Assembly (NCBI GenBank): GCA_015228875.1
Contig: JADGCS010000020.1
Span: 1-49,145, forward strand
Direction: 5' to 3'
DNA: 49,145 nucleotides
Origin: Deltaproteobacteria bacterium
Lineage (GTDB): Bacteria; UBA10199; JADGCS01
Positions 499 through 45,430 of this stretch are shown here, piece after piece. The position numbers were made by a program, and so were the translations under genes. The notes below the pieces were generated by a model that was not told where the DNA came from, ran no database searches, and worked only from the letters and a program-made list of their open reading frames with translations. Position 1 is the first letter of the stretch; each line of letters opens with the position of its first letter.

Positions 499-1002
499 AT
501 GAAAATAAAATTTATGGATAGAAATTTCAAAGTCGACAGAGCGCGGGTGCATTCCTCGCATGGCGGGGAAACTCAACCGCGTCCCCCAAGGGGATTTTCT
601 TCGGGGCATCAAAGTCAAGTTAGTAACTTGTTGATCACGGTATTTTTTTTAATCAGTTGCACATTTAGTTTGGGTGTCTCTGCCGCATCCTCAGAGCAGG
701 ACCTCGAAACCCGCCACCTCAAAAGCACATCATCAGACGCCGGCAAAAAATACGAAAAGCAGATTGCAGGGGTTTTTATGGGGAGTGCCCCCATCATGAA
801 AGACTGTCTGCCGCTGCAAAAAGACCTCTCCGCCACATTTGTTCTTTACTATGTTGTTTCAAGGGTTGGTAAGGTAGAAGAAGCCGTGTCTTTTCCCCAA
901 AACGAGACATCAAAATGCATGGAAGACTATCTGCTCAAACAAGACTTTCCCCTCCCCAATGAGGTCTTTGTGGGAAAGATTCGCATGTCTTTTCAAAAGT
1001 AG
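499..1002 (+). CDS. Small exported protein, AgmX/PglI C-terminal-like, with repeat-encoded insert
   Basis: ATG 499 follows an AAGGCGG ribosome-binding site. Four residues (MKIK) are followed by 39 codons read through dispersed element B (511-627), and then by a strongly hydrophobic stretch, LLITVFFLISCTFSLGVSA. Removing the insert gives an ordinary signal peptide, MKIK+LLITVFFL. The mature part (about 100 residues) has two Cys (KDCLPL and TSKCMED) about 45 residues apart and a closing block, FPLPNEVFVGKIRMSF. It resembles the AgmX/PglI-type C-terminal beta domain of deltaproteobacteria (weak family recognition). Translation could instead start at TTG 628 or 631 just after the repeat. Its TAG stop overlaps the first bases of element A. 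Confidence 0.6.
   Translation: MKIKFMDRNFKVDRARVHSSHGGETQPRPPRGFSSGHQSQVSNLLITVFFLISCTFSLGVSAASSEQDLETRHLKSTSSDAGKKYEKQIAGVFMGSAPIMKDCLPLQKDLSATFVLYYVVSRVGKVEEAVSFPQNETSKCMEDYLLKQDFPLPNEVFVGKIRMSFQK
511..630 (+). repeat. Dispersed element B, copy 1 (inside a CDS)
   Basis: Standalone B module. It carries the core GAAATTTCAAAGTCGAC, the GCGCGGGTGCATTCCTCGC block and the terminal palindrome CAAGTTAGTAACTTG. A variant insert near 580-608 (CCCCAAGGGGATTTTCTTCG) is shared with the copy at 20641. Bases 511-627 are a multiple of three and lie in frame within the gene starting at 499. Other copies end at 6437, 10942, 15079 and 20766, and one lies inverted at 45270-45360. Confidence 0.9.
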
Positions 1003-1165
1003 AACCTTGGAAGGTTTTTTCTACGCGCCGGGGTCTGGCGCGTAGCGCCGGACATGAAATCATTCATGTCCGATCGCAATGCACCCCGCGTAGTATCTGG
1101 CGCACAGCGCCAAACATGAAACCCTTCATGTTTGATCGCAATGCACTCCGCTTTATGCGGGTTAA
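1001..1165 (+). repeat. Dispersed element A, copy 1 (tandem-unit variant)
   Basis: Begins with a terminator-like hairpin, AACCTTGGAAGGTT, followed by Ts. It then has two tandem units of about 60 bp, each holding a TGGCGC/GCGCCA palindrome, an ACATGAAA/TTCATGT palindrome and GATCGCAATGCA. It closes with CCGCTTTATGCGGGTTA. It fills the whole gap between two convergent genes (stops at 1002 and 1175), so it could serve as a bidirectional terminator. Other copies: 6239, 10724, 31963 and 32983 (degenerate). Confidence 0.9.
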
Positions 1166-4402: not shown

Positions 4403-6061
<1,659 letters not shown>

Positions 6062-6138: not shown

Positions 6139-6238
6139 GTTTCTCCTGGCACCGCCGTTTTTTTGGGTGATAAATGAGAGTTGAGAAAGTCTGCTCATCT
6201 TGCTAGTGTCATTGCGGCATCCCAAAACTTTAATGTAT

Positions 6239-6437
6239 AGAACCTAAGTAGGTTTTCTCGACGCGCCGGGGTCTGGCGCATAGCGCCGGACATGAAATCA
6301 TTCATGTCCGATCGCAATGTACCCCGCGTAGGATTTTCCGCTTTATGCGGGTTATGAATTTCAAAGTCGACAGAGCGCGGGTTCATTCCTCGCAAAATGA
6401 AGGAATTCAACCGCGTTAAAGTCAAGTTAGTAACTTG
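6239..6437 (+). repeat. Dispersed element A+B, copy 2
   Basis: The A module (start AGAACCTAAGTAGGTTTTC, single internal unit) is joined to the B module (GAATTTCAAAGTCGACAG to the palindrome CAAGTTAGTAACTTG). It fills most of the gap between the groEL terminator and the VKOR gene and ends 57 nt before the ATG at 6495. Confidence 0.9.
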
Positions 6438-6494: not shown

Positions 6495-7076
6495 ATGACA
6501 GGGTTGCAAAAAGAAAAAAAATGGTTCCTTGCGATAGTCGTAACTGCGGCATTGGGTATTGCAGTCTGTATTTACCTGACGCACATCCATTTTAAGGTGC
6601 ACACAGGCGATGATGCTTATTCGAGCATCTGTAACATCAATGCAGAGTACAACTGCGATGCGGTTGCGGCGAGTGAGTGGTCCATTTTTTTTGGCATACC
6701 GGTTTCACTCTGGGGACTGCTGTTTTATCTTGGTTGTCTTGGATTTAGCCTTGTTAAACTGCTTACAAAAAAGCTGCAAAACCTCTCTGTGTATCTCTGC
6801 TGGGGCGGGGGGTGCGCTGTTGGTTTTTCTGTTTGTCTGGCATACATTTCCAAGGTGATGCTTGACACATGGTGCCTGTTCTGCATGGCAAGCTGGCTCT
6901 TGACACTTCTTGTTTTTGTATTCAGCATCCTTGCCTGTACCTTACCGGTTATCAAACATTTTGCAGTTTTTAAACAGGGGGCCCTGTGGGTTCTTCAAAG
7001 GCCGCTGAGGATGATTGCCGAAGTGGTCCTTGTTGCACTGTTTGTGTCCCTGGTGGGGTTTGCCTGGAGTGAGTAA
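6495..7076 (+). CDS. Vitamin K epoxide reductase (VKOR) family membrane protein, first half of an interrupted fusion
   Basis: An integral-membrane enzyme that reoxidises DsbA-type partners with quinone as electron acceptor, driving disulfide formation outside the cytosol. After a short basic N-terminus there are about five hydrophobic helices. The periplasmic-loop Cys pair is in SSICNINAEYNC, followed by a conserved Ser region (SEWSIFFGIPVSLWG), and the active-site WCLFC is near residue 130. ATG 6495 was chosen over the TTG at 6435, which is the last codon of element B. The TAA at 7074 stops the frame, yet the same frame continues as a DsbA-like domain (7077-7694), so the original protein was very probably a VKOR-thioredoxin fusion. 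Confidence 0.85.
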   Translation: MTGLQKEKKWFLAIVVTAALGIAVCIYLTHIHFKVHTGDDAYSSICNINAEYNCDAVAASEWSIFFGIPVSLWGLLFYLGCLGFSLVKLLTKKLQNLSVYLCWGGGCAVGFSVCLAYISKVMLDTWCLFCMASWLLTLLVFVFSILACTLPVIKHFAVFKQGALWVLQRPLRMIAEVVLVALFVSLVGFAWSE

Positions 7077-7694
7077 TTAAAACGCATCAAGGTTGAGAGG
7101 GACAATGCCCCCAAATTCGAAAAATTAAAAAAACAAATAGAGACCGCGGGTCATTATTATGGGAGTGATGCCCCCATCCTCACGATCACTGAATTTTCAG
7201 ACTATCAGTGCCCGCATTGCAGTGTGCTTCACAGCCAGTTAAGAAAACTGGTCGGCGAGACCCACGGCCTCAAGGTGATGCACAAGGACTATCCCATGGA
7301 TCACCAGTGTAATCCTGCACTCAAGAAACCCTTTCACACAGAGGCCTGCAAGACAGCTTTGTTTGTGCGCTGCGCCGGAGAGCAGGGCCGCTACTGGGAG
7401 GCCGCCGACCTTGTGTTTGAAAATCAAAAACAGCTGAAAGACCCGGAGATTTACAACACGATGATCCTTGCCCTCACGCTGGAGAGCAAGGCTCTTCATC
7501 ACTGCATGAATGAGGACGCTGTGATCAAGGAGGCCCTGATGACCGACATCAAAGAGGCTCTGACACATCGGTTTAGAGGGACACCTGTGATCATCTTTGA
7601 GGGGACGGAGCAGCTTGTGTCAAACTGGGCGGGCGGGCGTTTGGGGCAGGTTGTCAGGGATTACATCAGAAAAAAACGATACCAGAGTAAGTAG
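7077..7694 (+). CDS. DsbA-like thioredoxin domain, second half of the interrupted VKOR fusion
   Basis: In the same frame as the VKOR gene, directly after its TAA. It reads a linker (LKRIKVERDNAPKFEKLKKQ), then DAPILTITEFSDYQCPHCSV with the CPHC redox motif, a helical insertion, and FRGTPVIIFEG with the cis-Pro. A GTG at 7224 would begin after the CPHC, so a protein started there would lack its active site. No ATG, GTG or TTG in frame lies between the TAA and the CPHC. The segment therefore only makes sense as the C-terminal domain of the fusion, expressed by stop readthrough, or as a broken or mis-sequenced gene. It has no signal peptide of its own, as expected for a fused domain. Confidence 0.8.
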   Translation, partial: LKRIKVERDNAPKFEKLKKQIETAGHYYGSDAPILTITEFSDYQCPHCSVLHSQLRKLVGETHGLKVMHKDYPMDHQCNPALKKPFHTEACKTALFVRCAGEQGRYWEAADLVFENQKQLKDPEIYNTMILALTLESKALHHCMNEDAVIKEALMTDIKEALTHRFRGTPVIIFEGTEQLVSNWAGGRLGQVVRDYIRKKRYQSK

Positions 7695-10477: not shown

Positions 10478-10635
10478 CTAGGAGCCTGTCGGACAACTCC
10501 TGTTTCGGAGGAGTCCTGAAAAATCATGTCCCGTGACAAAACGTAAAGACATGATTTTTCAGGGTTTGAAATATTTTGCAAGCGGCAAAATTTTCAAACT
10601 TCCGGAGAAACAGGAGTTGTCCGACAGGCTCCTAG
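10478..10635 (-). repeat. Element C, copy 1 (outer stem with two inner hairpins)
   Basis: A 158-bp near-perfect inverted repeat. The outer arms start CTAGGAGCCTGTCGGACAAC and end with their complement. Inside are one hairpin around TGAAAAATCATGTC/GACATGATTTTTCA and another around TTTGAAA...TTTCAAA. The flanks read CTA and TAG. It is inverted relative to copies at 18088 and 26246. It may also act as the secA terminator. Confidence 0.93.
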
Positions 10636-10723
10636 ATAAAAAATCCGTGTTTTGATGTGCAAAAAAAAACTAGCAACACATGGCCCCACCCTGCCGATGA
10701 CCTTGTCAACTAATTAAATGTTT

Positions 10724-10942
10724 AGAACCTTGGAAGGTTTTTTCTACGCGTTTCGGCATCAATTTTTGCATGGTGTCCATCCGCGTAGTGTCTGGCGCAT
10801 GGCGCCAAACATGAAACCCTTCATGTTTGATCGCAATGCACTCCGCTTTATGCGGGTTAAGAATTTCAAAGTCGACAGAGCGCGGGTGCATTCCTCGCAA
10901 AATAGAGGCATTCAACCGCGTCAAAGTCAAGTTAGTAACTTG
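10724..10942 (+). repeat. Dispersed element A+B, copy 3 (most complete, 219 bp)
   Basis: A reference copy of the full element: hairpin AGAACCTTGGAAGGTT with T-run, CTACGCG...CGCGTAG, TGGCGCATGGCGCCA, ACATGAAACCCTTCATGT, CCGCTTTATGCGG, then module B ending CAAGTTAGTAACTTG. Each block is itself palindromic, so the RNA would be a chain of hairpins. It ends 14 nt before the next ATG. Confidence 0.93.
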
Positions 10943-14985: not shown

Positions 14986-15079
14986 ACTTATGTATAGGAA
15001 TTTCAAAGTTGACAGAGCGCGGGTGCATTCCTCGCAAAATAGAGGCATTCAACCGCGTCAAAGTCAAGTTAGTAACTTG
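14986..15079 (+). repeat. Dispersed element B, copy 4
   Basis: Standalone B module, starting AAAACTTATGTATAGGAATT and ending CAAGTTAGTAACTTG. It lies about 65 nt upstream of the ATPase promoter and points away from the ATPase gene. Confidence 0.9.
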
Positions 15080-18087: not shown

Positions 18088-18239
18088 GTGTCTGTCGGGA
18101 AAGCCCCTGTTTCTCCGGAAGTTTGAAAATTTTGCCGCTTGCAAAATATTTCAAACCCTGAAAAATCATGTCTTTACATTTTGTCACGGGACATGATTTT
18201 TCAGGACTCCTACGAAACAGGGCATTTCCCGACAGACAC
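18088..18239 (+). repeat. Element C, copy 2
   Basis: 152 bp. Outer arms GTGTCTGTCGGGAAAGCCCC and complement (two mismatches), with the same two inner hairpins as copies at 10478 and 26246. The outer-arm bases differ from the other copies on both sides in step. Confidence 0.93.
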
Positions 18240-20640: not shown

Positions 20641-20766
20641 TTTATGCATGGGAATTTCAAAGTCGACTGAGCGCGGGTGCATTCCATGCAAAACAGAAGA
20701 AAACAAGAAAGGTGCCGCGTTCCCCAAGGCATTTCCTTCGGGCATAAAAGTCAAGTTAGGAACTTG
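20641..20766 (+). repeat. Dispersed element B, copy 5 (variant)
   Basis: GGAATTTCAAAGTCGACTG start, variant middle with CCCCAAGGCATTTCCTTCGG (as in copy 1), end CAAGTTAGGAACTTG. It sits in the 328-bp divergent gap 20442-20769 and ends 3 nt before the nitrilase ATG. The rest of that gap (20442-20640) is AT-rich and presumably holds the pal promoter; no clear -35/-10 pair was seen. Confidence 0.88.
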
Positions 20767-26245: not shown

Positions 26246-26403
26246 TGGGAGTCTGTCGGGCAACCCCCTGTTTCTCCGGAAGTTTGAAAATTTTGCCGCT
26301 TACAAAATATTTCAAACCCTGAAAAATCATGTCTTTACGTTTTGTCACGGGACATGATTTTTCAGGACTCCTCCGAAACAGGGGATTGCCCGACAGACTC
26401 CCA
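26246..26403 (+). repeat. Element C, copy 3
   Basis: 158 bp between lnt and prfB. Outer arms TGGGAGTCTGTCGGGCAACC and complement (one mismatch), with the same two inner hairpins as the other copies and the same orientation as copy 2. Confidence 0.93.
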
Positions 26404-31962: not shown

Positions 31963-32097
31963 AGAACCTTGGAAGGTTTTTTCTACGCGTTTCGGCATCA
32001 ATTTTTGCATGGTGTCCGCCCGCGTAGTGTCTGGCGCATAGCGCCAAACATGAAACCCTTCATGTTTGATCGCAATGCACTCCGCTTTATGCGGGTT
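31963..32097 (+). repeat. Dispersed element A, copy 4
   Basis: Single-unit A module (AGAACCTTGGAAGGTT, CTACGCG, TGGCGCATAGCGCCA, ACATGAAACCCTTCATGT, CCGCTTTATGCGG). It fills the whole gap between yjbQ and phoH, antisense to both. On the minus strand it is open in the phoH frame. Confidence 0.92.
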
Positions 32098-32108
32098 GTG
32101 GGGAGCCA

Positions 32109-32982: not shown

Positions 32983-33072
32983 AAGAACCTTAGAAGGTTT
33001 TTTTATACGCGTTTCAGCAACAATGTTTTTTGAGCGGCCAATCCGCGTAGTATTGCCCGCTTTGTGCGCGTG
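32983..33072 (+). repeat. Dispersed element A, copy 5 (degenerate)
   Basis: AGAACCTTAGAAGGTTTTTTT, then TACGCGTTTCAGCAACAATG, a degraded middle and CGCGTAGTATTGCCCGCTTTGTGCG. It has lost the paired TGGCGC and ACATGAAA blocks. It lies 70 nt upstream of the transglycosylase ATG. Confidence 0.8.
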
Positions 33073-35258: not shown

Positions 35259-35421
35259 ACAAGAACAAAGAGCGGGAAATCCTTACGTTCCTGCGGATAC
35301 GCCCGACGGAAATAAATTCAAACACGGCAAATAGAGCGGAAAACAGCGAAATCCTGACAGATGTATATGTTGTCGGGCTTAGGTCCTCGTCACTACAGGA
35401 TTTCCCGTGCTTTGTTCTTGT
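35259..35421. repeat. Element D, copy 2
   Basis: 163 bp, the same length as the core of copy 1. Arms ACAAGAACAAAGAGCGGGAA... and complement; arm bases differ from copy 1 on both sides together. Its right arm encodes the last nine residues and stop of the neighbouring 1,037-residue protein. Confidence 0.9.
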
Positions 35422-38400
35422 TGCTCCGTTTTATCCGGATCAGCAAGAAAGTCAAAAGCAAAATTGTAAAGACAGGCAATCCCCTGTTTGTGCACCTTTG
35501 CTGTGTGGCATGTAAACTGCAATTCATGGCCCCGCCAAAGGCGCCAAAGATGGTGCCTGGGGGCTGGTCCACGGTATCGACACCCACGTTGGGTGTTTGT
35601 GATTCTGTAAGGTTAAGCGTGCAGACCTCACAGTAGATGGCCTTTTCGACTGTGATATCCTTTGTGGCTGGTAGTGTAAACTCCGCCACTGCCATCTTGA
35701 TCGCGGGGGTGTTTGCAGATGTCGGGATATTGTTGACAGGCGTCGCTGTTGCAGTTCCCGACTGATCCCCATGAACAGGTCTGGCGTCATAAGTTTTGAT
35801 GTCAATCTCAAAACCGGCCACGTAGACACTGTTGTCTTTGGGCTTGTCAAGCGGCATGGAGGGTGTTGGTTCGTCGGGATTGCCTGTTTTTTGTAATACA
35901 ATCTCTGTCAGCAGGTCCTTTGTTTTAAGGTCGTACACGTTGACGTTATTGTTTTCGGTATCGTAAACAAAAAGGTCCACCTCTGATGCGGCGAGCCTTG
36001 CATTGTCTGCGGCGATGGCGTCGATGATGACATCGGCTTCAAGCGTTTCGGCCCCCACCTCGGCAATCATGGCATTCTCACCACCTGTAAGGATATACAG
36101 TTTATTGTAGGGATCAAAGACTGCATCGGTGATGCTATCGATGGTCAGCCCGGTATTGAGTGCCAGGGCGTCTTTAAGCAGGTACTCCTGCGTGTAATCG
36201 ATGTTGGTCTGATCATCAAAATTTGCCATGCTGTAAATATTACCATCGGTGGTGAGGGCAAAGAGTTTGTTCTGACCGTCCGTGAATACTTTTTTTACGG
36301 GCGTCTCTGTCTTGAATGTTCTTAAAATATCCCCCGCCTCGTTCCAGCAGTAAACCTTATTGCTTGCAACACCCACGCCGGGGGCGCAGGTTACAGCAAC
36401 AGGCGCTTTTTTGGATGCAGGGCAGATGGCGATTGCTGGGGGCTTTGCCGGACGACAGGCGTATTTTTCAATACAGGGGTCCACACAGTCTATGACCCCG
36501 TTGTTGTCATTATCGAGATCGGCCACACCACAGCCGCAGGCGCCGGGGGCCGTCTTTAAAGGATCTGCGGGACAGGCGTCCGGCTCGATACAGGTAAAGT
36601 CGTTGCTTGAGGCGCTGACTACCTTTTCAAATCCGGCCTTGCACTTTACGCGGCATCCAGGCTCACCGTTCTGAGAATTGGGTAGTGCACATGTTTTATT
36701 CGCCGCACCAAGATTGACGTCAAGACCGGGTTCACATTCTTCGCCCTTGACGCAGGTGTTTAAGGGATCGTTGTAACTCATATCAAGTATAGAAGAGATG
36801 GCCGTTTCCGCAGCCAAGGCATCAGCAGACCAGAAGGTAATGATTGAAGCAGGCCTGCCAAACTGCCAGCCTGTTTCGGGCACTGCAAGGGTGCTCAAAA
36901 GGGCGCTAATGTCGGGAGATGTATAGTTGGGGCCATTTGCCGGGATGAGTGTCCAACTGATGCAGTCGTCTTCGTTAAAGTTGGAGAGTCTCTGGGAGAT
37001 GTGGTTTGCTGAGGCCGCGTCAAAGACAAAATCGGGTGCGTCATTTGTTCTCTCAATGCAGAGAGCAAGTGTTGCCTCTGCGATTAACGGTGTTGACAGG
37101 GTAAATTTTAGGTGGATGTCTGTGTTTTCGGCGTCAGCAAGCGGGTTATTACCGGATTGAAGCACTTGTGTCGGGTAGATGGCGCCGTGATAAACAAGGC
37201 CCGCTGCCGCGTCTGTGTACAGTACCGGTGTGACGTTTCTGGGAGGCGCGTTGAAAGCAGTGAGTGCGTTGCAGGGATCCTGAATCACGCCGTCGCCGCA
37301 AGTGGCCAGTTTGCAGGTATTAGAGCACGCGTCGTTTGTGATAAAGTTGCCGTCGTCGCAGGGTTCACCCGCCTCGACAACACCGTTGCCGCAGGCAGGG
37401 GCTGTGATGCCCGAACAGGCAATGTTGCACTTGTTTGGCTCGCCATTATGGCCATCATCGTCGCAGGCCTCGTTTGGGGTATCGGTGATGCCATCGCCGC
37501 ACATCATGGTATCGCCATCTGCGTCTTGGCAGTGTGCATCGCAGACCGTACAGTTTGACCGACCGTAGGCACATGCCTCGGTGATGGTGTTGCCGTCGTC
37601 GCAGGCCTCACCTGCTTCTTCCACCGAATTACCGCACACAGAGGGCGTTATGCCGTTACATGTGCTGTTGCACTGGTTTGGCCGGCCGTTGAGGGCTGCT
37701 CCGTCATCGCAGGTTTCACCTGCTTCCTGTATTGTGTTACCGCACACTGCGGGCGTTATGCCGTTACACGTACTGTTACAGTGGTTTGGCTGGCCATTGA
37801 GGACTGGACCTTCGTCGCAGCTTTCACCTGCTTCCCGTATTGTATTACCGCACACTGCGGGCGTTATGCCGTTACACGTACTGTTACAGTGGTTTGGCTG
37901 GCCATTGAGGACTGGACCTTCGTCGCAGGTTTCACTGGCATTCACATATCCCTCAACAGTGCCGTTCCCGCAACAAACGCCGCCCTCGTCGGTGAGGGCG
38001 TTGACATCGGGGTTGTTGTTGATGCCGTCGCAGACCTCTGTGTTGGAAATTTGGACGATGAGACGCGGCACCTCGGACAGTTCCCCTAATTGACACAGTA
38101 CTTCTTCTGGTCCACTAGCGGTCATTTTAATGCATTGTTCGAGTGAGACGGGTCTGTCATTTACGGTGACATAAAACGGTTTTTCAGCTTGAGAACGAAG
38201 ATACTGGCACTGCAGTATAAACAGTTCGGCGGGCGGGCTGCCATCAACCTCTCTGTTGATGGGATTAACCGGATGAGGGTCATCGGGGTCCACAAGGCCG
38301 GGGTCTAAGCAACGCAATTCACGAACAGGATCGTCTGTTGATACCTTGATATCCGAAACATCAATCCCTTCCGTAATAACACCCATCTCAGAAAAATACA

Positions 38401-38503
38401 GACGGATAACCTCTGTCTCCATATCGGCGACCTGAGCGAAACCAAAGGAAGGTGTCAGCGCAATTATGATCAGGTAAAGGACTGATATGATGGTTCTCTT
38501 CAT
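35393..38503 (-). CDS. Exported Cys-rich DUF4215-repeat protein with propeller-like region and sorting-type tail
   Basis: 1,037 residues. Signal peptide (MKRTIISVLYLIIIALTPS, cleavage near GFAQ). An N-terminal domain (LYFSEMGVITEGIDVSDIKV) is shared with the next gene upstream. Cys-rich repeats of the myxobacterial DUF4215 type (CGNTIREAGESCDEG...) include near-identical 36-residue units. A calcium-type DLDNDNNGVIDC loop precedes a region of repeated strands (NKVYCWNEAGDILRTF, KLFALTTDGNIYSM, KLYILTGGENAMI) like a beta-propeller. It ends GGAMNCSL, a membrane helix (LPVFTILLLTFLLI) and RIKRS. The final NKNKAREIL comes from element D. Likely anchored on the cell surface. Third gene of a minus-strand operon, 17 nt after its neighbour. 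Confidence 0.88.
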   Translation of the reverse strand: MKRTIISVLYLIIIALTPSFGFAQVADMETEVIRLYFSEMGVITEGIDVSDIKVSTDDPVRELRCLDPGLVDPDDPHPVNPINREVDGSPPAELFILQCQYLRSQAEKPFYVTVNDRPVSLEQCIKMTASGPEEVLCQLGELSEVPRLIVQISNTEVCDGINNNPDVNALTDEGGVCCGNGTVEGYVNASETCDEGPVLNGQPNHCNSTCNGITPAVCGNTIREAGESCDEGPVLNGQPNHCNSTCNGITPAVCGNTIQEAGETCDDGAALNGRPNQCNSTCNGITPSVCGNSVEEAGEACDDGNTITEACAYGRSNCTVCDAHCQDADGDTMMCGDGITDTPNEACDDDGHNGEPNKCNIACSGITAPACGNGVVEAGEPCDDGNFITNDACSNTCKLATCGDGVIQDPCNALTAFNAPPRNVTPVLYTDAAAGLVYHGAIYPTQVLQSGNNPLADAENTDIHLKFTLSTPLIAEATLALCIERTNDAPDFVFDAASANHISQRLSNFNEDDCISWTLIPANGPNYTSPDISALLSTLAVPETGWQFGRPASIITFWSADALAAETAISSILDMSYNDPLNTCVKGEECEPGLDVNLGAANKTCALPNSQNGEPGCRVKCKAGFEKVVSASSNDFTCIEPDACPADPLKTAPGACGCGVADLDNDNNGVIDCVDPCIEKYACRPAKPPAIAICPASKKAPVAVTCAPGVGVASNKVYCWNEAGDILRTFKTETPVKKVFTDGQNKLFALTTDGNIYSMANFDDQTNIDYTQEYLLKDALALNTGLTIDSITDAVFDPYNKLYILTGGENAMIAEVGAETLEADVIIDAIAADNARLAASEVDLFVYDTENNNVNVYDLKTKDLLTEIVLQKTGNPDEPTPSMPLDKPKDNSVYVAGFEIDIKTYDARPVHGDQSGTATATPVNNIPTSANTPAIKMAVAEFTLPATKDITVEKAIYCEVCTLNLTESQTPNVGVDTVDQPPGTIFGAFGGAMNCSLHATQQRCTNRGLPVFTILLLTFLLIRIKRSNKNKAREIL
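37625..37950. repeat. 108-bp tandem repeats in the Cys-rich gene
   Basis: Three units encoding ITPAVCGNTIREAGESCDEG and 16 more residues. The last two are almost identical over 100 bp, pointing to recent expansion or gene conversion. Confidence 0.9.
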
Positions 38504-38520
38504 ATTGTGTCTCTTTCGCG

Positions 38521-40533
38521 TTATGGTGCAGGTACCGCAGATTCCTGCCATTCGATTTCTCCAGTCCCATTCATCCGCAGGATATATCCTTTGCCTGGTT
38601 TAATACTCCTGAGACTATCCTCTTCGTCAAGCGGCGGTTCGTACAGCATAATGTTTCCCGCAGAGTTCATGTGTTTGATATTATCCAGTCCAGTGAGTTG
38701 CTGTAACGTGACGCCAATATCCCCGGCCGCTGCGTCGGCGTTATGCAGGCCAAACCCCACCCAGTTTTCTCCGGGCGTGAGTGTAAACCGCTGATCAGCC
38801 CTGCGCACACCCTGAATTGTGAGCGTGCTGCCCAGACTGACATTGAGGATATAGTTTTTCATCGGTGTCATCTGGGTCAATGTCTTGGGGATGGGCAGCC
38901 TGTTGGTGTAACTGAGGATAAATCCGGAAGACGGGTCACGATGCTGGATATTAAACCCGACTGTGGCAGTGGAGCCAGTCGCTGTTAAACCCCGCATGAT
39001 AAACACCGGATCATTCGTAACCGCGCCAGTGTTGTTGTTCCACACATCGAGGGGCAGGGAGATCCAGTTGTTACCGGCGTTTAACGGGATGTTATAGGTG
39101 ATGAGGCAGATCTTGTCGCTAAAGTGCTCGGTGCCATTACATGAGGAAACATTACCGCAGTCAACACCTGGCTCTCCACAACGACGATGTTCGGGTCCTG
39201 TCTCAAAGCAGACAGTTTCCTCGGGTGTGGCGCGTGCGTCTGAGGATGAACAGACACCGCGTGTGACGCCATCTACCACGGTTGATGTACAAACCTTGAT
39301 CCCGTTACACGCATCCGACTCAGGCTCTTCGCATGGCAAGCCGTCATTAATAGGTGTGGGTCTTAACCCGTTCACTGCATCATAGTTGTACCTTTCACAT
39401 TCTCTGACTGTAAGTGTACAGTTGTTGTTGCAGCCATCGCCATCGGTTGCATTACCGTCGTCGCACTGCTCGGCGGGCAATCCTTCTGTGCTGTTATTTA
39501 CTATCCCGTCACCGCACGATTCGAGCTGACATGTGGCATTGCAACCATCGAGGGCATTGTTGTTACCGTCGTCGCACTCTTCATTGGTGCCATCGTTATC
39601 AATACCATCACCGCAGAACTCGTCGTGACATGTGGCATCGCAACCATCGAGACTCACGTTGTTGCCGTCGTCACATTGTTCATTAGTGCCATCGTTATCG
39701 ATACCATCACCGCAGAATTCGTCGTGACATGTGGCATCGCAGCCATCGATGGCATTGTTGTTGCCGTCATCACACTCTTCGTTGGTGCCGTCATTGTCGA
39801 TACCATCACCGCAGAATTCGTCGTGACATGTGGCATCGCAGCCGTCGCCAGCATCTGTGTTGTCGTCATCGCATTGTTCCAGCGGCTCCCCAAATTCTGC
39901 CCTGGCCCCCGGATAGTTTTCTTCTGTATTATTTCCACAACAGATATAGTCTTCGTCTGTCTTGCCGTCCCTGTCGTTATCAGCACCACCATAGGTGCCA
40001 TCACAAACCTCTACATCTGATATGGTGACCACCAAGGCTGGCATGCTGTTGAGCAGACACTCAACATCGTTTACCGCGATATCATCAGGGTCCTCTGTTG
40101 CAAGATCAAGTTCGATACTTCTGCATCGGTCACCTTCGATGTTAACCGGCACAAATTTAACCTCTGCATCGGCCGGATTGTCTATTTCGATTCTAAACTC
40201 ACGTCCAGAGATGGTCTCGGCATCGTATTGACACTGCAAGAGGATAATTTCGTTGGTGCCATCGGCGCTTGCATCATAATTGGCTATGGGAAAGTCAGCA
40301 GACCATGGGACCTGAAAACAAAAATAGCCATCATCGGGGTTGTCATCCATGACACGGTCGACACCAGCCGCGTCTGTGGCCACAACCCTGACATTTGACA
40401 CTGTAATGCCATCCTGCACCATCCCCTTGTCGGAAAAAAAGAGAAAGGCCGCCTCCGTAGTAAAACCCCAACCGACAGCAGGGGGCAGTGCCAGAACAAT
40501 TAAAGACACAATGGCAAAAATGATTTTTTTCAT
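38521..40533 (-). CDS. Exported Cys-rich DUF4215-repeat protein
   Basis: 670 residues. Signal peptide ([18 protein letters not shown], then VGWG). An N-terminal domain ([20 protein letters not shown] through [13 protein letters not shown]) is homologous to that of the downstream gene. Five or so Cys repeats follow ([20 protein letters not shown], 33-residue period) rich in Asp/Asn, possibly calcium-binding. The C-terminus has a [13 protein letters not shown] module, [11 protein letters not shown] and [12 protein letters not shown], nearly identical in DNA to the upstream gene. There is no membrane tail, so it is probably released or held by partners. Its ATG overlaps the stop of the upstream gene (ATGA). 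Confidence 0.88.
38793..39095 (-). repeat. About 300-bp near-identical duplicated module (second copy 40837-41140)
   Basis: The segment encoding NNWISLP...[13 protein letters not shown]...[10 protein letters not shown]...FTL is almost base-identical in both genes (a few substitutions only), while the flanking sequence is diverged. This indicates recent copying or ongoing gene conversion. Confidence 0.88.
39490..39860. repeat. 99-bp tandem repeats in the Cys-rich gene
   Basis: About four units, each encoding [20 protein letters not shown] and 13 more residues, in frame and highly similar. Confidence 0.88.
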
Positions 40534-43500
40534 GGTGTACCTCCACCTTCAAATTCTATTAATGACTCATCCCACTCCGCGCCGTTATCATCCATGTGCA
40601 TGATATAACCCTCGCCCGGGATGACCCCTGTCAATACAGCGCCTTCCAGGGGTGTGCCTAAAAGAGCGTCAATGCTGTCGTAGATAAAAATTGCCTTTGT
40701 AAGGGAGTCCAGATGCTGGATGTTAACGCTGTAGCCAGCAATAATTTGATCAAGCGTCTGCTCAATACCATAGGGCGGTATAAGCCCGGCGTTGTGCAGG
40801 CCAAAGCCCACCCAGTTTTCCCCGCTCTTTAATGTAAACTGCTGATCAGCCCTGCGCACACCCTGAATTGTGAGCATGCTGTCCAGACGGACGTTGAGGA
40901 TATAGTTTTTCATCGGTGTCATCTGGGTCAATGTCTTGGGGATGGGCAGCCTGTTGGTGTAACTGAGGATGAATCCGGAAGACGAGTCACGATGCTGGAT
41001 ATTAAACCCGACTGTGGCAGTGGAGCCAGTCGCTGTTAAACCCCGCATGATAAACACCGGATCATTCGTAACCGCGCCCGTGCTGTTGTTCCACACATCA
41101 AAGGGCAGCGAGATCCAGTTATTGCCTGTGATTAACGGGATCTCAAAACTAATGAGGCAGATCTTACGATCAAAATAGCTTGTGCCGTCGCATTCGATGA
41201 CATTGCCGCAATTGGTGCCGTCGCAGGGGTTTGCTGCTTCATCAAAACACACCGGTTCGAGCAGGGTGGCACCGTCTTCGATATCGGACGAACAGATAAC
41301 ATTGACGCCGTCATGAGTGGCGCATACCTTAATGCCGTTGCAGGCGTTTCCGTCTTCTTCACAGGGATTGCCGATGCTGTCCAGGCTTGGACAGGTATCA
41401 TGACAATCGGCAATACCGTCGCTGTCGGTGTCGGTATCGGGTGTGCCACAACCGCAAATGCCTGGCGCTGTTTTTAAAGGATCATCTTGACACTCGTCTG
41501 TGCTGACGGTTGTTGATGCGGTACAGCTAATGAGCGGGCCGTTTGTTCCGTCATCTAATTTGATCAAGGCCTTATAAACATTTATGGGCTGGTTTGCCCC
41601 TGCGTGGACGATGGGACATGTTGCTGTCGTGCCGGGATCACTGATGGCGTATGGGTCACTGGGAGGTCTTGAGCCATCCAATCTTGGGGGACACTGCAGG
41701 CTCACTTGACTGTAATTTCCACCGGCAATTGTGCATGTTGTGGTTGCTGTAGTTGTGCCCGCCGGAAAGGGCACAAGGCTGGGATCGCATGAGATTGAAG
41801 TGGGGCATATGGGGTCTTCACAATTATTTCCTATACCGTCATCATCATCGTCGCGTTGATTGGGATTTTCATTGGTTGGGCAGTTGTCGCAGGCATTGCC
41901 AAAGGCATCGCTATCGTTGTTGGCCTGATCGGCATTGATTGTCGTGTCACAGTTGTCAATACAATCGGCAACACCATCGGTGTCGGTGTCTGTGTCGGGT
42001 TGGCCACAACCGCAAATGCCGGGCGTGGTCTTTGCATCATCCAGTGGACACTCGTCTGTACTGATTGTGGTTGCTGTACCACAGACAAAACTCGACCATG
42101 TGACTGTTCCGTTATCCAGAGTTATCGACAATCTGCGAACACTCACCGGTTGATTTGCTCCCACCCGATCAACTGTACAGGTCGCACTGGTGGATGGATA
42201 ATTGACACTTGTGACTGTGCTATTGGGACACCTGATCATGGCCGACTGGTAGTTACCACCGACAACTGTGCAGGTTGTGGTTGCTGTAGTTGTTCCCGCC
42301 GGAAAGGGAACAAGGCTTGGATCGCACGAGATTGAAGTGGGGCAGGTGAGGTTTTCGCAATCATTGCCAATCCCATCACCGTCGTGGTCAAACTGATGGG
42401 GGTTAGAGACGTAGTCGCAGTTGTCGCAGGCGTCACCGAGTTCATCGGTGTCACTATTTAATTGATCGGGGTTGGCAACAAGATCACAATTATCGCAGGA
42501 GTCACCCAGAGAGTCTGTGTCGGTGTTTGCCTGATCGTTATTTGGGATTGTGGGACAGTTGTCGGCCCCATCGTGAACATTATCATCGTCGGTGTCTGTT
42601 TGGCATTCAGCGCAATGGTCACTGCCTTCACAATCCTCGGTACCATTGACCACGCCATCGCCGCAAGAGGCCGTGATTGTGATGGTGTCGCGTGATGTGG
42701 TGCAATCAGCGGAATCAAAATCATCATAACCAGTGAGATAGTGCACACGGCCGACAGAGACTGTGATTGTGCCCGTTGTGCTTACAATGCAAGATGCGGC
42801 GGTATTCGTAGTGAGTCCGTCATACCATGGAGGGGATGTATCGGCCGGGAAAACAGCATCAGAACTGCCTGCACAAGTGACAAAGGCTGTATCGTAACGC
42901 CCGTCTTTGATTGTGCAGGTAAGGTTTGTGTTTTGAACGACTGTTGCGGGACAATCCACAACAGGGCACACGGCATCACATGAATTTCCTTTTGATGCAG
43001 TAGCACCTTCGGCCGTGTCGTTGTTTGTTTGTGGTGTGTTTGGGGTGTTGGGGCAGTTGTCGCGGCAGTCGGGGAAACCGTCGAGGTCTGTGTCGGGGAA
43101 GTCTTCGTCTGTTAAGCCATCGCAGTCGTCGTCGAGATTGTTGCAGGTTTCGGGTGCATTAGGGTGGATTGAGTCAACAGTGTCATCGCAGTCAGTTGCC
43201 GGTTCAGACAAGGCCCCTTCGCCAGCATCCGCACAATCTGCATCAGCGGAGGTTACAGTGAGGGAGGTGTTCGTGTTGCGGTAATTATCACTATCCTGAT
43301 CCTTAAAGCAGATTTCGCCGCCATTGCAATTTTGATCAATGCCGTCACCCGTCACCTCTGTGGCGCCCGGGTGGATTGAGGCGACAATGTCATTACAGTC
43401 ACCAGGCCCATTTGGGCATTCGGGTGGATTGCCCTCATAGACGAGCGTTGCATCACAGTAATCATCCCCGTCATCATCACAGCCTTCATCAATCTCGCCG

Positions 43501-44699
43501 TTGCAGTTGTCGTCTTTACCGTCGCATTTTTCGATTCGAGTTGGATAAATTGTGGCGATATCGTCCTTGCAGTCGCAATTTTCGTCTGACACGGGACCCA
43601 ATGGATAACCGTCAGCATCACCATCTGTACTTGGCATATTCTCACAGCGGTTGTCCCAGCCCAGAACATTGGTGCAACGATATTCGTCATTGGTGCAAAG
43701 ATCCGCGTCTGATGATGACTCGCAGGCATCTCCTGCCGCAGGATCTCTTGAATCGACTGTGTCAGAGCCGTCTAAGGTAAAAGCGGTGCAGTCGTTGTCT
43801 ACCCCGTCGCAGTAGTCGGGGGCATTTGGATAGGTAGTGGAATTGCTGTTGTCACAGTCACCGGTGACTGGCGCGCGATACTCATCGGCACTGCAGTCAA
43901 GGCTTAGACCATCTACAACTGTTGCGATTCCATAGTTGTCGTTATCGGTATCTCTGTAGCACGAATCCACACCATCGCAGTCTTGATCGATGCCGTCGGC
44001 AGGGGTCTCTGTTGCCCCTGGGTGATAAATTGTGACATGATCATTGCAATCACCGCTCACAGCGGCAAGCCGGTAGTCCGCAACGCAGTTAAGACTGATG
44101 CCATCGACTATAGTAGAACTTCCGTACCCATCATTGTCGCTGTCGTAATAGCAGGAGTCAACACCATCGCAGTCCTGATCTATGCCATCGCCCGGGGTAT
44201 CTGTAGCATCTGGGTGAATATTCCCATTTCCTGTTGCATCGTTGCAGTCGTCTCCCACAGATTTGTAAGATGGGGTATCGGGACAGACAGCCGGGGTTCC
44301 AAAATGTCTGCGTCCATCGCTTCCATCCGGCCATTTGGCATCACAATAATCATCACTATCGTTGTCACAACCCTCATCTACAAACCCGTCACAGTCGTTG
44401 CTTATTCCATCACAGGCCTCATCAATAATGCACTGCCCAGAGACACAAATGGCGAATTGACAGGTGCATTGCGTGTGGCACTGACTATCGTTTTCACAAA
44501 AAGCGCTTTGAAAAGGGAGGGGTGTACATGCGGTGAGGGCCTGCGCATTTGGTGTGACAAAGCAAGCAAATACGACAAGTACAATGAAATAGGTTATTCT
44601 GCGAAAAAAGCTACGAGCATTTTTTGAGAATCCAAAACGTACTAAGGTGATGGTCGAAGCCAAAACAGGGACAAGGCATGGTGTTTTTTCTTTACCCAT
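40530..44699 (-). CDS. Giant exported protein with MopE-type metal-binding and thrombospondin type 3 repeats
   Basis: 1,389 residues from ATG 44699, chosen because AGGAG lies 4 nt before it (ATG 44702 is too close). Basic stretch and hydrophobic segment ([20 protein letters not shown]) form a long signal peptide. Residues about 60-480 carry MopE-type units ([34 protein letters not shown]). The middle holds thrombospondin type 3-like calcium repeats ([19 protein letters not shown]) and three copies of a [20 protein letters not shown] domain. The C-terminus repeats the [24 protein letters not shown] module. Dozens of Asp/Asn loops imply heavy calcium binding on the cell surface. First gene of the operon. 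Confidence 0.9.
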
Positions 44700-44702
44700 C
44701 AT

Positions 44703-45010
44703 ACTCCTAATAAGCAATTTCAGTGCCATCCCCAAAAAAATCGTCATTAAATAATATTGATTAAGTTCAATGCGTTACTTCAATAATACATGCTGTTTAG
44801 GTTTTTTGAGGCAGGTTGCTCCGTCAATCATTTTGATAATTTTATCATTTTGAGAGGCGTTTTGGGGTGTAGACACATCAGATGACAGCTGTTGATTGTG
44901 GTGTAAGATGCACCGCTTTTGTGATCAGGGGTTGACGGGGGGTGCGGCTTTGAGGGGGTGGGGTTATGTCAATAAAAAACTGGGAAAGGGCCACGGATAC
45001 GAGATAACTA
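44703..45010. other. Upstream region of the Cys-rich operon, no gene
   Basis: About 300 bp of non-coding sequence before the element at 45011. It should hold the promoter of the three-gene operon, but no confident -35/-10 pair was found. No repeat family member lies here. Confidence 0.5.
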
Positions 45011-45269: not shown

Positions 45270-45360
45270 CAAGTTACTAACTTGACTTTGACGCGGTTGA
45301 ATTCCTTCATTTTGCGAGGAATGCACCCGCGCTCTGTCGACTTTGAAATTCCCAGACATT
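45270..45360 (-). repeat. Dispersed element B, copy 6
   Basis: Minus-strand B module from GGAATTTCAAAGTCGACAG to CAAGTTAGTAACTTG. It lies directly upstream of the ATPase operators and points away from the ATPase gene, as copy 4 does at the other ATPase. Confidence 0.92.
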
Positions 45361-45430
45361 AAAGTAGACTCAAGTCTACTTTACTCATGAGTAAAGTAGA
45401 CTTGACTCCACTTTATTAATGAGTCAAATA
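45360..45430 (+). promoter_or_regulatory. Iterated palindromes before the second ATPase
   Basis: TAAAGTAGACTCAAGTCTAC... (perfect 24-bp palindrome, 45360-45383), CTCATGAG, then an imperfect second copy TAAAGTAGACTTGACTCCAC... (45392-45415) and a half-site TAGAC ending next to the ATG. A TTGACT at 45402 with AAATAG 18 bp later may be the promoter, which would also make the mRNA almost leaderless. Confidence 0.7.

What the first reader, a model, noticed from the sequence alone, without database searches (positions are those of the whole stretch)
10724..10942. New modular A/B repeat family built as a chain of hairpins
The full 219-bp copy consists of at least seven palindromic blocks. The A and B halves occur alone or joined at nine places in 49 kb (511, 1001, 6239, 10724, 14986, 20641, 31963, 32983, 45270). 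Internal units are duplicated in one copy (1001) and swapped in others (511 and 20641 share a variant block). No transposase is nearby.
Basis: seen in the sequence. Interest (0 to 1): 0.72.

Follow-up and report, generated by a model that had tools for sequence, protein, structure and literature searches.

The report
Nested hairpin mini-elements inserting at TAG|G
This stretch of an unnamed bacterium's genome is two different short hairpin repeats, each present in well over a hundred copies, one sitting inside the other at a TAG|G site with no duplicated bases; the inner one likely spreads as a tiny DNA parasite moved by an enzyme encoded elsewhere.

Summary
In detail: all nine places are real, and the 10724-10942 copy is a chain of eight palindromic blocks. 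But A and B are not halves of one family. A (AACC...GGTTAT, mostly 87-136 bp) is an insertion. Removing it from 16 of 133 A copies rebuilds an intact B 5' end, without gaps, at TAG|GAATTTC; it also sits once in another A and once in B's 3' hairpin. Shifting the right cut by two bases leaves 0 or 1 ungapped joins, against 20 of 133 for the true end. There is no target duplication. The number of A-in-B composites (10 of 81) equals what random use of intergenic TAGG sites predicts (about 10), so composites form independently. A 48-nt hairpin cassette (C) with compensatory changes occurs at three places in A and outside A. Whole-genome counts: 167 A left ends, 295 B right ends, at least 99 C. The searches run found none in 59 other genomes, plasmids, phages or viral contigs, nor in Rfam. 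No transposase-carrying parent appeared in the 60% of the genome read, and no A or B abuts the ten Y1 transposase genes, as far as contigs reach. Movement by an HUH single-strand transposase in trans is my best guess, not shown.

The parts
10726..10860 (+). A element, long form (135 bp) carrying one C hairpin cassette; starts AACC, ends GGTTAA (consensus GGTTAT)
   Evidence: ends fixed by empty-site joins
10715..10725 (+). 5' end of the B copy (TAAATGTTTAG), left of the inserted A
   Evidence: B consensus TTNATGTMTAG|G; joined flanks match intact B copies
10861..10942 (+). Rest of the same B copy, GAATTTC...AACTTG (82 bp)
10726..10739 (+). A hairpin 1, AACCTT-GG-AAGGTT, followed by a T run
   Evidence: helix 1 97.6% of cells paired, T-A to A-T change at its last pair
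10744..10788 (+). A hairpin 2, CTACGCG ... CGCGTAG, with inner stem 10755-10761/10771-10778
   Evidence: helices 2 and 3 96.9% and 88.1% of cells paired
10794..10841 (+). C hairpin cassette (48 nt)
   Evidence: 9 of 16 pairs with changes on both sides
10843..10855 (+). A right-end hairpin CCGC-TTTAT-GCGG
   Evidence: helix 4 90.5% of cells paired; predicts a competing pairing instead
10881..10920 (+). B stem CGCGG ... CCGCG with inner CCTC/GAGG
   Evidence: read from sequence; (DNA, minus strand) pairs these arms
10928..10942 (+). B right-end hairpin CAAGTT-AGT-AACTTG
511..630 (+). B with extra ~27-bp cassette
1003..1165 (+). A with two C cassettes, one inside the CTACGCG stem, one after it
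6230..6437 (+). B interrupted by A (6241-6355) at TATAG|GAATTTC
14987..15079 (+). B, uninterrupted
20641..20766 (+). B with extra cassette
31965..32099 (+). A, long form
32984..33051 (+). Diverged A, left part (79% identical)
45270..45362 (-). B, uninterrupted

Best explanation
The block at 10715-10942 is two different short repeats, with A sitting inside the 5' end of a B copy exactly after TAG and before G without any duplicated target bases, and A likely spreads as a non-autonomous element that an HUH-type (single-strand) transposase encoded elsewhere in the genome would cut at its hairpin-marked ends and paste after TAG. Shown: the ends of A, the target preference, the absence of target duplication at the sites with an empty counterpart, the empty sites, and changes that keep the hairpins paired. 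Strongly suggested by A types and by target statistics: that composites arose independently. Inferred: that A is or was recently mobile, that the moving form is single-stranded DNA, and that the enzyme is an HUH transposase. B is a second dispersed hairpin repeat whose own mobility is inferred from copy number and sharp ends only. C hairpins and the two B cassettes are smaller hairpin units that replace or fill loops in A, B and a third repeat; how they move is unknown.
For: Empty sites: with AACC...TTAT removed, 20 of 133 A copies give flanks that match another place across the join, all 20 without a gap. With two bases fewer or more removed, 12 and 14 still match but only 0 and 1 without a gap; with right flanks permuted (5 runs) 3-5 match without a gap. 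Of the 20, sixteen are B 5' ends, one another A (AAGTAG|GTTTTTT), one B's 3' hairpin (GTTAG|TAACTTG). Target: left TAG 67 of 133, right G 123 of 133; both together 59 of 133, in the first set and in two held-out sets (39/81, 7/21, 13/31), against 0.14% of sampled intergenic positions. Random targeting: in the 1.22-Mb set 53 empty B copies carry TAGG among 506 intergenic TAGG sites, predicting about 10 A-in-B; 10 are seen (one search lists 11, one of which, at C133, is not a B on reading). The 16 nested A fall into 11 combinations of left loop, inner loop, length and cassette. Folding: C has 9 pairs and 25 cells changed on both sides against 3.2 and 6.8 in shuffles, 0 of 500 as high; A has 17 such cells against 6.2. 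Recent spread: 28 long A copies are 94% alike on average, median nearest neighbour 99%. Recognition of hairpins near the ends is what IS200/IS605 transposases do (abstract start of PMC6006769); their lack of target duplication is recalled. B lies in the GC-skew-positive orientation 152 to 66, and 47 to 26 where gene direction cannot explain it.
Against: No enzyme was tied to A or B. None of the ten Y1_Tnp loci has A or B next to the gene, though five are cut by a contig end within 35-207 bp on one side. Two IS91-type traces at contig edges match no A/B place. No left end without a right end, other than chance, contig-edge or inverted cases, occurs in 2.76 Mb. As I recall, IS200/IS605 elements need no fixed base to the right, yet G follows A in 123 of 133; and A's first hairpin starts at base 1, closer to the end than in recalled IS608. 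The skew bias of A vanishes where gene direction is neutral (17 to 12). For A the number of pairs with two-sided change is not above shuffles (3 against 2.3, 184 of 500), nor are extra pair types for C (13 against 12.0, 129 of 500). B has no clean empty site (one ambiguous case).
Confidence: 0.55

Rival explanations
1. A is moved by a non-HUH enzyme that joins double-stranded DNA precisely at TAG|G, for example a serine or other recombinase, with the G a true part of the target.
For: The right-hand G in 123 of 133 copies is easier to explain by a two-sided double-strand target. The genome also holds reverse transcriptases.
Against: A two-base crossover core would leave the core on both sides; the counted bases in the nested cases exclude it (TAGG gives TAG...G). 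No A, B or C lies in the six reverse-transcriptase loci. Conserved terminal hairpins are not expected of such enzymes (recalled). Serine recombinases were not searched for.
Confidence: 0.2
2. A and B are one modular functional element (a BOX-like or RNA element) assembled from fixed modules.
For: Modules recur joined, hairpins keep their pairs through change, and elements lie between genes (A inside predicted genes in 22 of 133, B in 21 of 244, against 86% coding). B points with co-directional neighbours 93 to 52, which a role in transcripts could explain.
Against: The joined form is A splitting a B at one precise site, with intact B elsewhere, at the frequency of random TAGG use, and A also splits another A and B at another position.
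Confidence: 0.07
3. The repeats are dead relics: copied long ago by an enzyme since lost, now kept or spread only by recombination.
For: No enzyme found; 93 short B copies are 83% alike on average with no identical neighbours.
Against: Long A copies have near-identical neighbours (median 99%), and none of the families was found in 59 other genomes, which points to spread within this lineage.
Confidence: 0.18

Closest known systems
REP / REPIN elements moved by RAYT (TnpA-REP) Y1 transposases
   Same: Hairpin-forming, intergenic, hundreds of copies, no gene of their own, tyrosine (HUH) transposases present in the genome
   Different: REPs are 20-40 bp with a GTAG tag, and REPINs sit beside a RAYT gene (PMC3733652, PMC3116915, passages read); A is 87-189 bp, begins AACC, inserts after TAG, and abuts none of the ten Y1 genes as far as contigs reach
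CGTC-tagged REPs
   Same: Palindromic, without a dedicated transposase; the genome also carries a CGTC-like repeat that hosts C hairpins
   Different: 8-9 bp stems, 4-5 nt loops (PMC3733652, passages read); A, B and C have longer, composite folds
PATEs and other non-autonomous IS200/IS605 derivatives (PATEs named in a PMC4853749 passage; details recalled)
   Same: Hairpin ends, precise insertion with a fixed 5' target and no duplication
   Different: No parent IS with the same ends found; strong right-hand G
BOX elements of Streptococcus pneumoniae
   Same: Modular, with inner units present once, twice or not at all
   Different: BOX is boxA and boxC around boxB arrays (PMC3049150, passages read); here two independent repeats nest by insertion
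MITEs (including Correia-type elements)
   Same: Short, gene-free, high-copy, foldable
   Different: MITEs have terminal inverted repeats and target duplications (PMC3049150 passage); A has only a 4-bp AACC/GGTT match at its ends and no duplication

Membership tests
REP/REPIN with RAYT | 20-40 bp palindrome with GTAG at one end | tested here: not met
   A is 87-189 bp, starts AACC and ends TTAT; GTAG occurs inside A, not at its end
REP/REPIN with RAYT | copies flank a RAYT-type Y1 gene | tested here: not met
   0 of 10 Y1 loci have A or B next to the gene; one has an A piece about 1.3 kb away. Five loci are cut by contig ends on one side. One locus (L040) has a C hairpin 62 bp past the gene, outside that element's 28-bp inverted repeats
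CGTC REP | CGTC tag plus 8-9 bp stem with 4-5 nt loop | tested here: not met
   B holds CCGCGTC, but by reading its stems and loops differ from the PMC3733652 passages
MITE | terminal inverted repeats | tested here: not met
   A ends AACC/GGTT only
MITE | target site duplication | tested here: not met
   joined flanks rebuild the empty site with no extra base
non-autonomous IS200/IS605 element (PATE) | insertion after a short fixed 5' target, no duplication | tested here: met
   TAG to the left in 67 of 133, no duplication at sites with an empty counterpart
non-autonomous IS200/IS605 element (PATE) | hairpins at or near both ends | tested here: met
   left hairpin 97.6% and right hairpin 90.5% of cells paired in 44 short copies; structure drawn by me from the consensus
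non-autonomous IS200/IS605 element (PATE) | ends shared with an IS200/IS605 transposon | tested here: not met
   no such element among ten Y1 loci (five incomplete) or in 2.76 of 4.58 Mb; TnpB-type PF07282 0 matches in the whole genome
non-autonomous IS200/IS605 element (PATE) | strand bias with replication | tested here: inconclusive
   A 68:41 overall, 17:12 where gene direction is neutral; B 152:66 and 47:26
BOX element | boxA ... boxC end modules with boxB arrays | not tested
   no sequence comparison with BOX was run; architecture differs by reading
known Rfam RNA family | match at the gathering score | tested here: not met
   0 matches in the window; nothing better than E 3.1 over A or B at the permissive threshold

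The most novel reading that the evidence does not exclude
A self-contained ecosystem of mobile DNA hairpins: A, B and C are parasites at three scales, C growing into the loops of A and of a CGTC-like repeat, A landing in B, all moved as single-stranded hairpins by one unrecognised enzyme with the rule TAG|G, so that new elements are built by loop-by-loop capture of hairpins rather than by decay of a parent transposon.
Probability: 0.2. Interest if true: 0.75.

Novelty: new variant of a known kind. Interest (0 to 1): 0.5.

Why it matters
How short palindromic repeats spread in bacteria is still argued; for many families neither the exact unit nor the target is known. Here the unit (AACC...GGTTAT), the target (TAG|G), the lack of duplication and many empty sites can be read from one genome, because the repeats use each other as targets. 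That gives a concrete cleavage prediction that can be tested in a tube. Composite repeats that look designed can also be explained by random nesting alone.

Tried and rejected
Known RNA family: none. Horizontal carriers: no match in plasmids or phages, and no exact match of one B and one A pattern in viral contigs. Autonomous parent: among 139 A left ends in 2.76 Mb, 6 lack a right end; 2 lie at a contig edge (where assemblies break at repeats), 1 is an inverted left end, 3 are chance. Flanks of Y1, Y2 and reverse-transcriptase genes: no A/B ends. C hairpins there: one, in L040. B empty site: one candidate (C146) in a CGTC-like repeat, too diverged to fix B's left end. A C hairpin with extra bases interrupts an IS91-type gene relic at C133 that is uninterrupted in L104, but not as a clean insertion. 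RNAalifold consensus on A and B gave few pairs and no two-sided changes, and for A a competing right-end pairing; the structures counted for A and C were drawn by me, which favours them, and related copies inflate such counts. The B apical stem shifts register between subtypes, so B was not counted. GC-skew bias looked strong at first but is partly gene direction.

Rows dropped: the C133 copy (not a B); elements inside predicted genes or without a neighbour on both sides; palindromic reverse-strand readings of C (26 distinct of 55 kept from 109 hits); in the A and B alignments copies of other lengths (44 and 28 of 81 A; 93 of 119 B). In one search the 53 B sites were not themselves filtered for lying outside predicted genes.

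Sampling caution: the first 1.22 Mb and the 0.36-Mb lot were taken largely from contigs known to hold copies, so densities there are not the genome mean; the 1.19-Mb lot was taken by contig number.

Full report
What is there. Reading the window confirmed all nine places and showed the 10724 copy to be a chain of eight palindromic blocks; it folds better than all 200 dinucleotide shuffles as RNA and as DNA. The window is contig C122 of a 4.58-Mb genome in 228 contigs. Counted over the whole genome, A's left end occurs 167 times (84+83, up to one mismatch, reversed control 0), B's right-end hairpin 295 times (161+134, up to one mismatch, reversed control 0) and the C hairpin at least 99 times (101 of 1,935 candidates scored).

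Where A begins and ends. I read 2,764,768 bases of this genome, 60%, in three lots: 1.22 Mb including the window, then later lots of 0.36 and 1.19 Mb used as held-out sets. They hold 133 A copies with both ends and 244 B copies with both ends, of 139 and 269 left ends. A starts AACC and ends GGTTAT. Left of it stands TAG (67 of 133) and right of it G (123 of 133); both together in 59 of 133, with a like preference in the two held-out sets, against 0.14% of sampled intergenic positions.

Empty sites. Removing AACC...TTAT and joining the flanks gives, for 20 of 133 copies, a sequence that exists elsewhere across the join, all without a gap. With the right cut moved by two bases, 12 and 14 still match but only 0 and 1 without a gap; permuted flanks give 3 to 5 ungapped, some of which will be B half-sites meeting by chance. 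Of the 20, sixteen are B 5' ends (TAG|GAATTTC), one is a second A, one is B's right hairpin (TAG|TAACTTG), one is a tandem A that matches its own neighbour, and one is an unidentified repeat. No base is duplicated. The B-hairpin case lacks the G, so the G belongs to the target, not to A.

Why A and B appear joined. In the first set 53 empty B copies offer TAGG among 506 intergenic TAGG sites, so random use predicts about 10 A-in-B composites of 81 A; 10 are present (one search lists 11; the one at C133 is not a B on reading). The 16 composites over all sets carry 11 combinations of left loop, inner loop, length and cassette. The composites are therefore best read as independent hits, not a designed pair or one spreading unit.

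Hairpins within hairpins. In 26 distinct C sequences 9 of 16 pairs have changes on both sides (shuffles 3.2) and 25 cells against 6.8; the count of extra pair types is not above shuffles. C sits in A after the CGCGTAG stem, in place of that stem's loop, or just inside it, and outside A in several places, among them the loop of a CGTC-like repeat (39 of 55 C copies read in that sense lie in A as called). B carries one hairpin cassette between CCGCGTC and AAAGTC in 45 of 244 copies and another after GCGCGGG in 8 of 244. How these cassettes are exchanged I cannot say.

Place in the genome. By my own simple gene caller (86% coding) A lies inside a predicted gene in 22 of 133 and B in 21 of 244, far below chance. 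Between co-directional genes B points with them 93 to 52 (p 0.0008) and A 48 to 32 (p 0.09). B also follows GC skew where gene direction is neutral (47 to 26, p 0.019); A does not (17 to 12). So a replication-strand bias is suggested for B and open for A.

Distribution. None of the 59 other genomes searched (one of the same family, six of the same order, 38 of the same class, 14 more distant) matched in three searches: the whole 224-bp DNA (at most 13 candidates a genome scored), B's right hairpin, and the C model (101 candidates a genome, stricter filters). Plasmids and phages gave nothing for the 224 bp, viral contigs nothing for one exact pattern each of A and B. Only collections held here were searched.

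Mechanism. Precise insertion after a short fixed sequence, no duplication and conserved end hairpins point to an HUH single-strand transposase acting in trans. This is an inference from resemblance. The ten Y1 genes are candidates only: none has A or B next to it, with five loci cut by a contig end on one side, and no A-ended element with a gene was seen in 60% of the genome. One Y1 gene (L040, C21) has a C hairpin 62 bp downstream, 22 bp outside that element's perfect 28-bp inverted repeats; whether this is a link or a neighbour I cannot tell. The strong right-hand G is not explained by the model.

Literature. Read as passages: PMC3733652, PMC3049150, PMC4853749, PMC3116915; seen as search listing with the start of the abstract: PMC6006769 and PMC8266576. 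In the listings (one search returned nothing) no title or abstract start describes this arrangement; the library lacks most subscription journals, so this is weak evidence of absence.

Noticed in passing
window 10478-10635, 18088-18239, 26246-26403: A second dispersed repeat, about 157 bp with 42-45 nt inverted arms; 22 BLAST pieces in 449 kb, some of them the two readings of one copy. Looks like an ordinary MITE.
   Followed up: partly
C176:13660, C153:24054 and 37230, C195:52142, C150:32788, C99:20268 (G000): A CGTC-like palindromic repeat (GATCGCCACG...CGCTCGCGATGACGA) with a C hairpin in its loop; a copy without the hairpin exists at C11.
   Followed up: partly
L040:143-1280 (C21): A Y1 transposase gene between perfect 28-bp inverted repeats, with a C hairpin in a CGTC-like repeat 22 bp outside the right one.
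   Followed up: partly
C133:11381-11611 against L104:88-248: An IS91-type gene relic that carries a C hairpin with extra bases where another copy has none; not a clean insertion.
   Followed up: partly
C111:97847, C143:39423, C160:1461 (minus strand, G000): B variant whose right hairpin is CAAGCGCTAGCTTG instead of CAAGTTAGTAACTTG.
   Followed up: no
C146 about 6979-7100 and C195 about 5720-5802 (G000): A variants with a different left hairpin (AAGCACTAAGCAGTGCTT or similar) ahead of CTACGCG.
   Followed up: no
L137 (C202:14230-14829) and L136, L138, L141: A diversity-generating-retroelement-like reverse transcriptase beside an FGE-like protein, and group II-type reverse transcriptases, two of which end in the same APRAQRRIA tail; type assigned by eye.
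   Followed up: no
window 35393-44747: Large ORFs with internal 99- and 108-bp tandem repeats, possibly repeat-rich surface proteins.
   Followed up: no
PMC4853749 against the A target: Thiomargarita nelsonii has intergenic hairpin repeats that end in a TATAG direct repeat; some A copies have TATAG on the left only and no direct repeat, so likely coincidence (passage).
   Followed up: no
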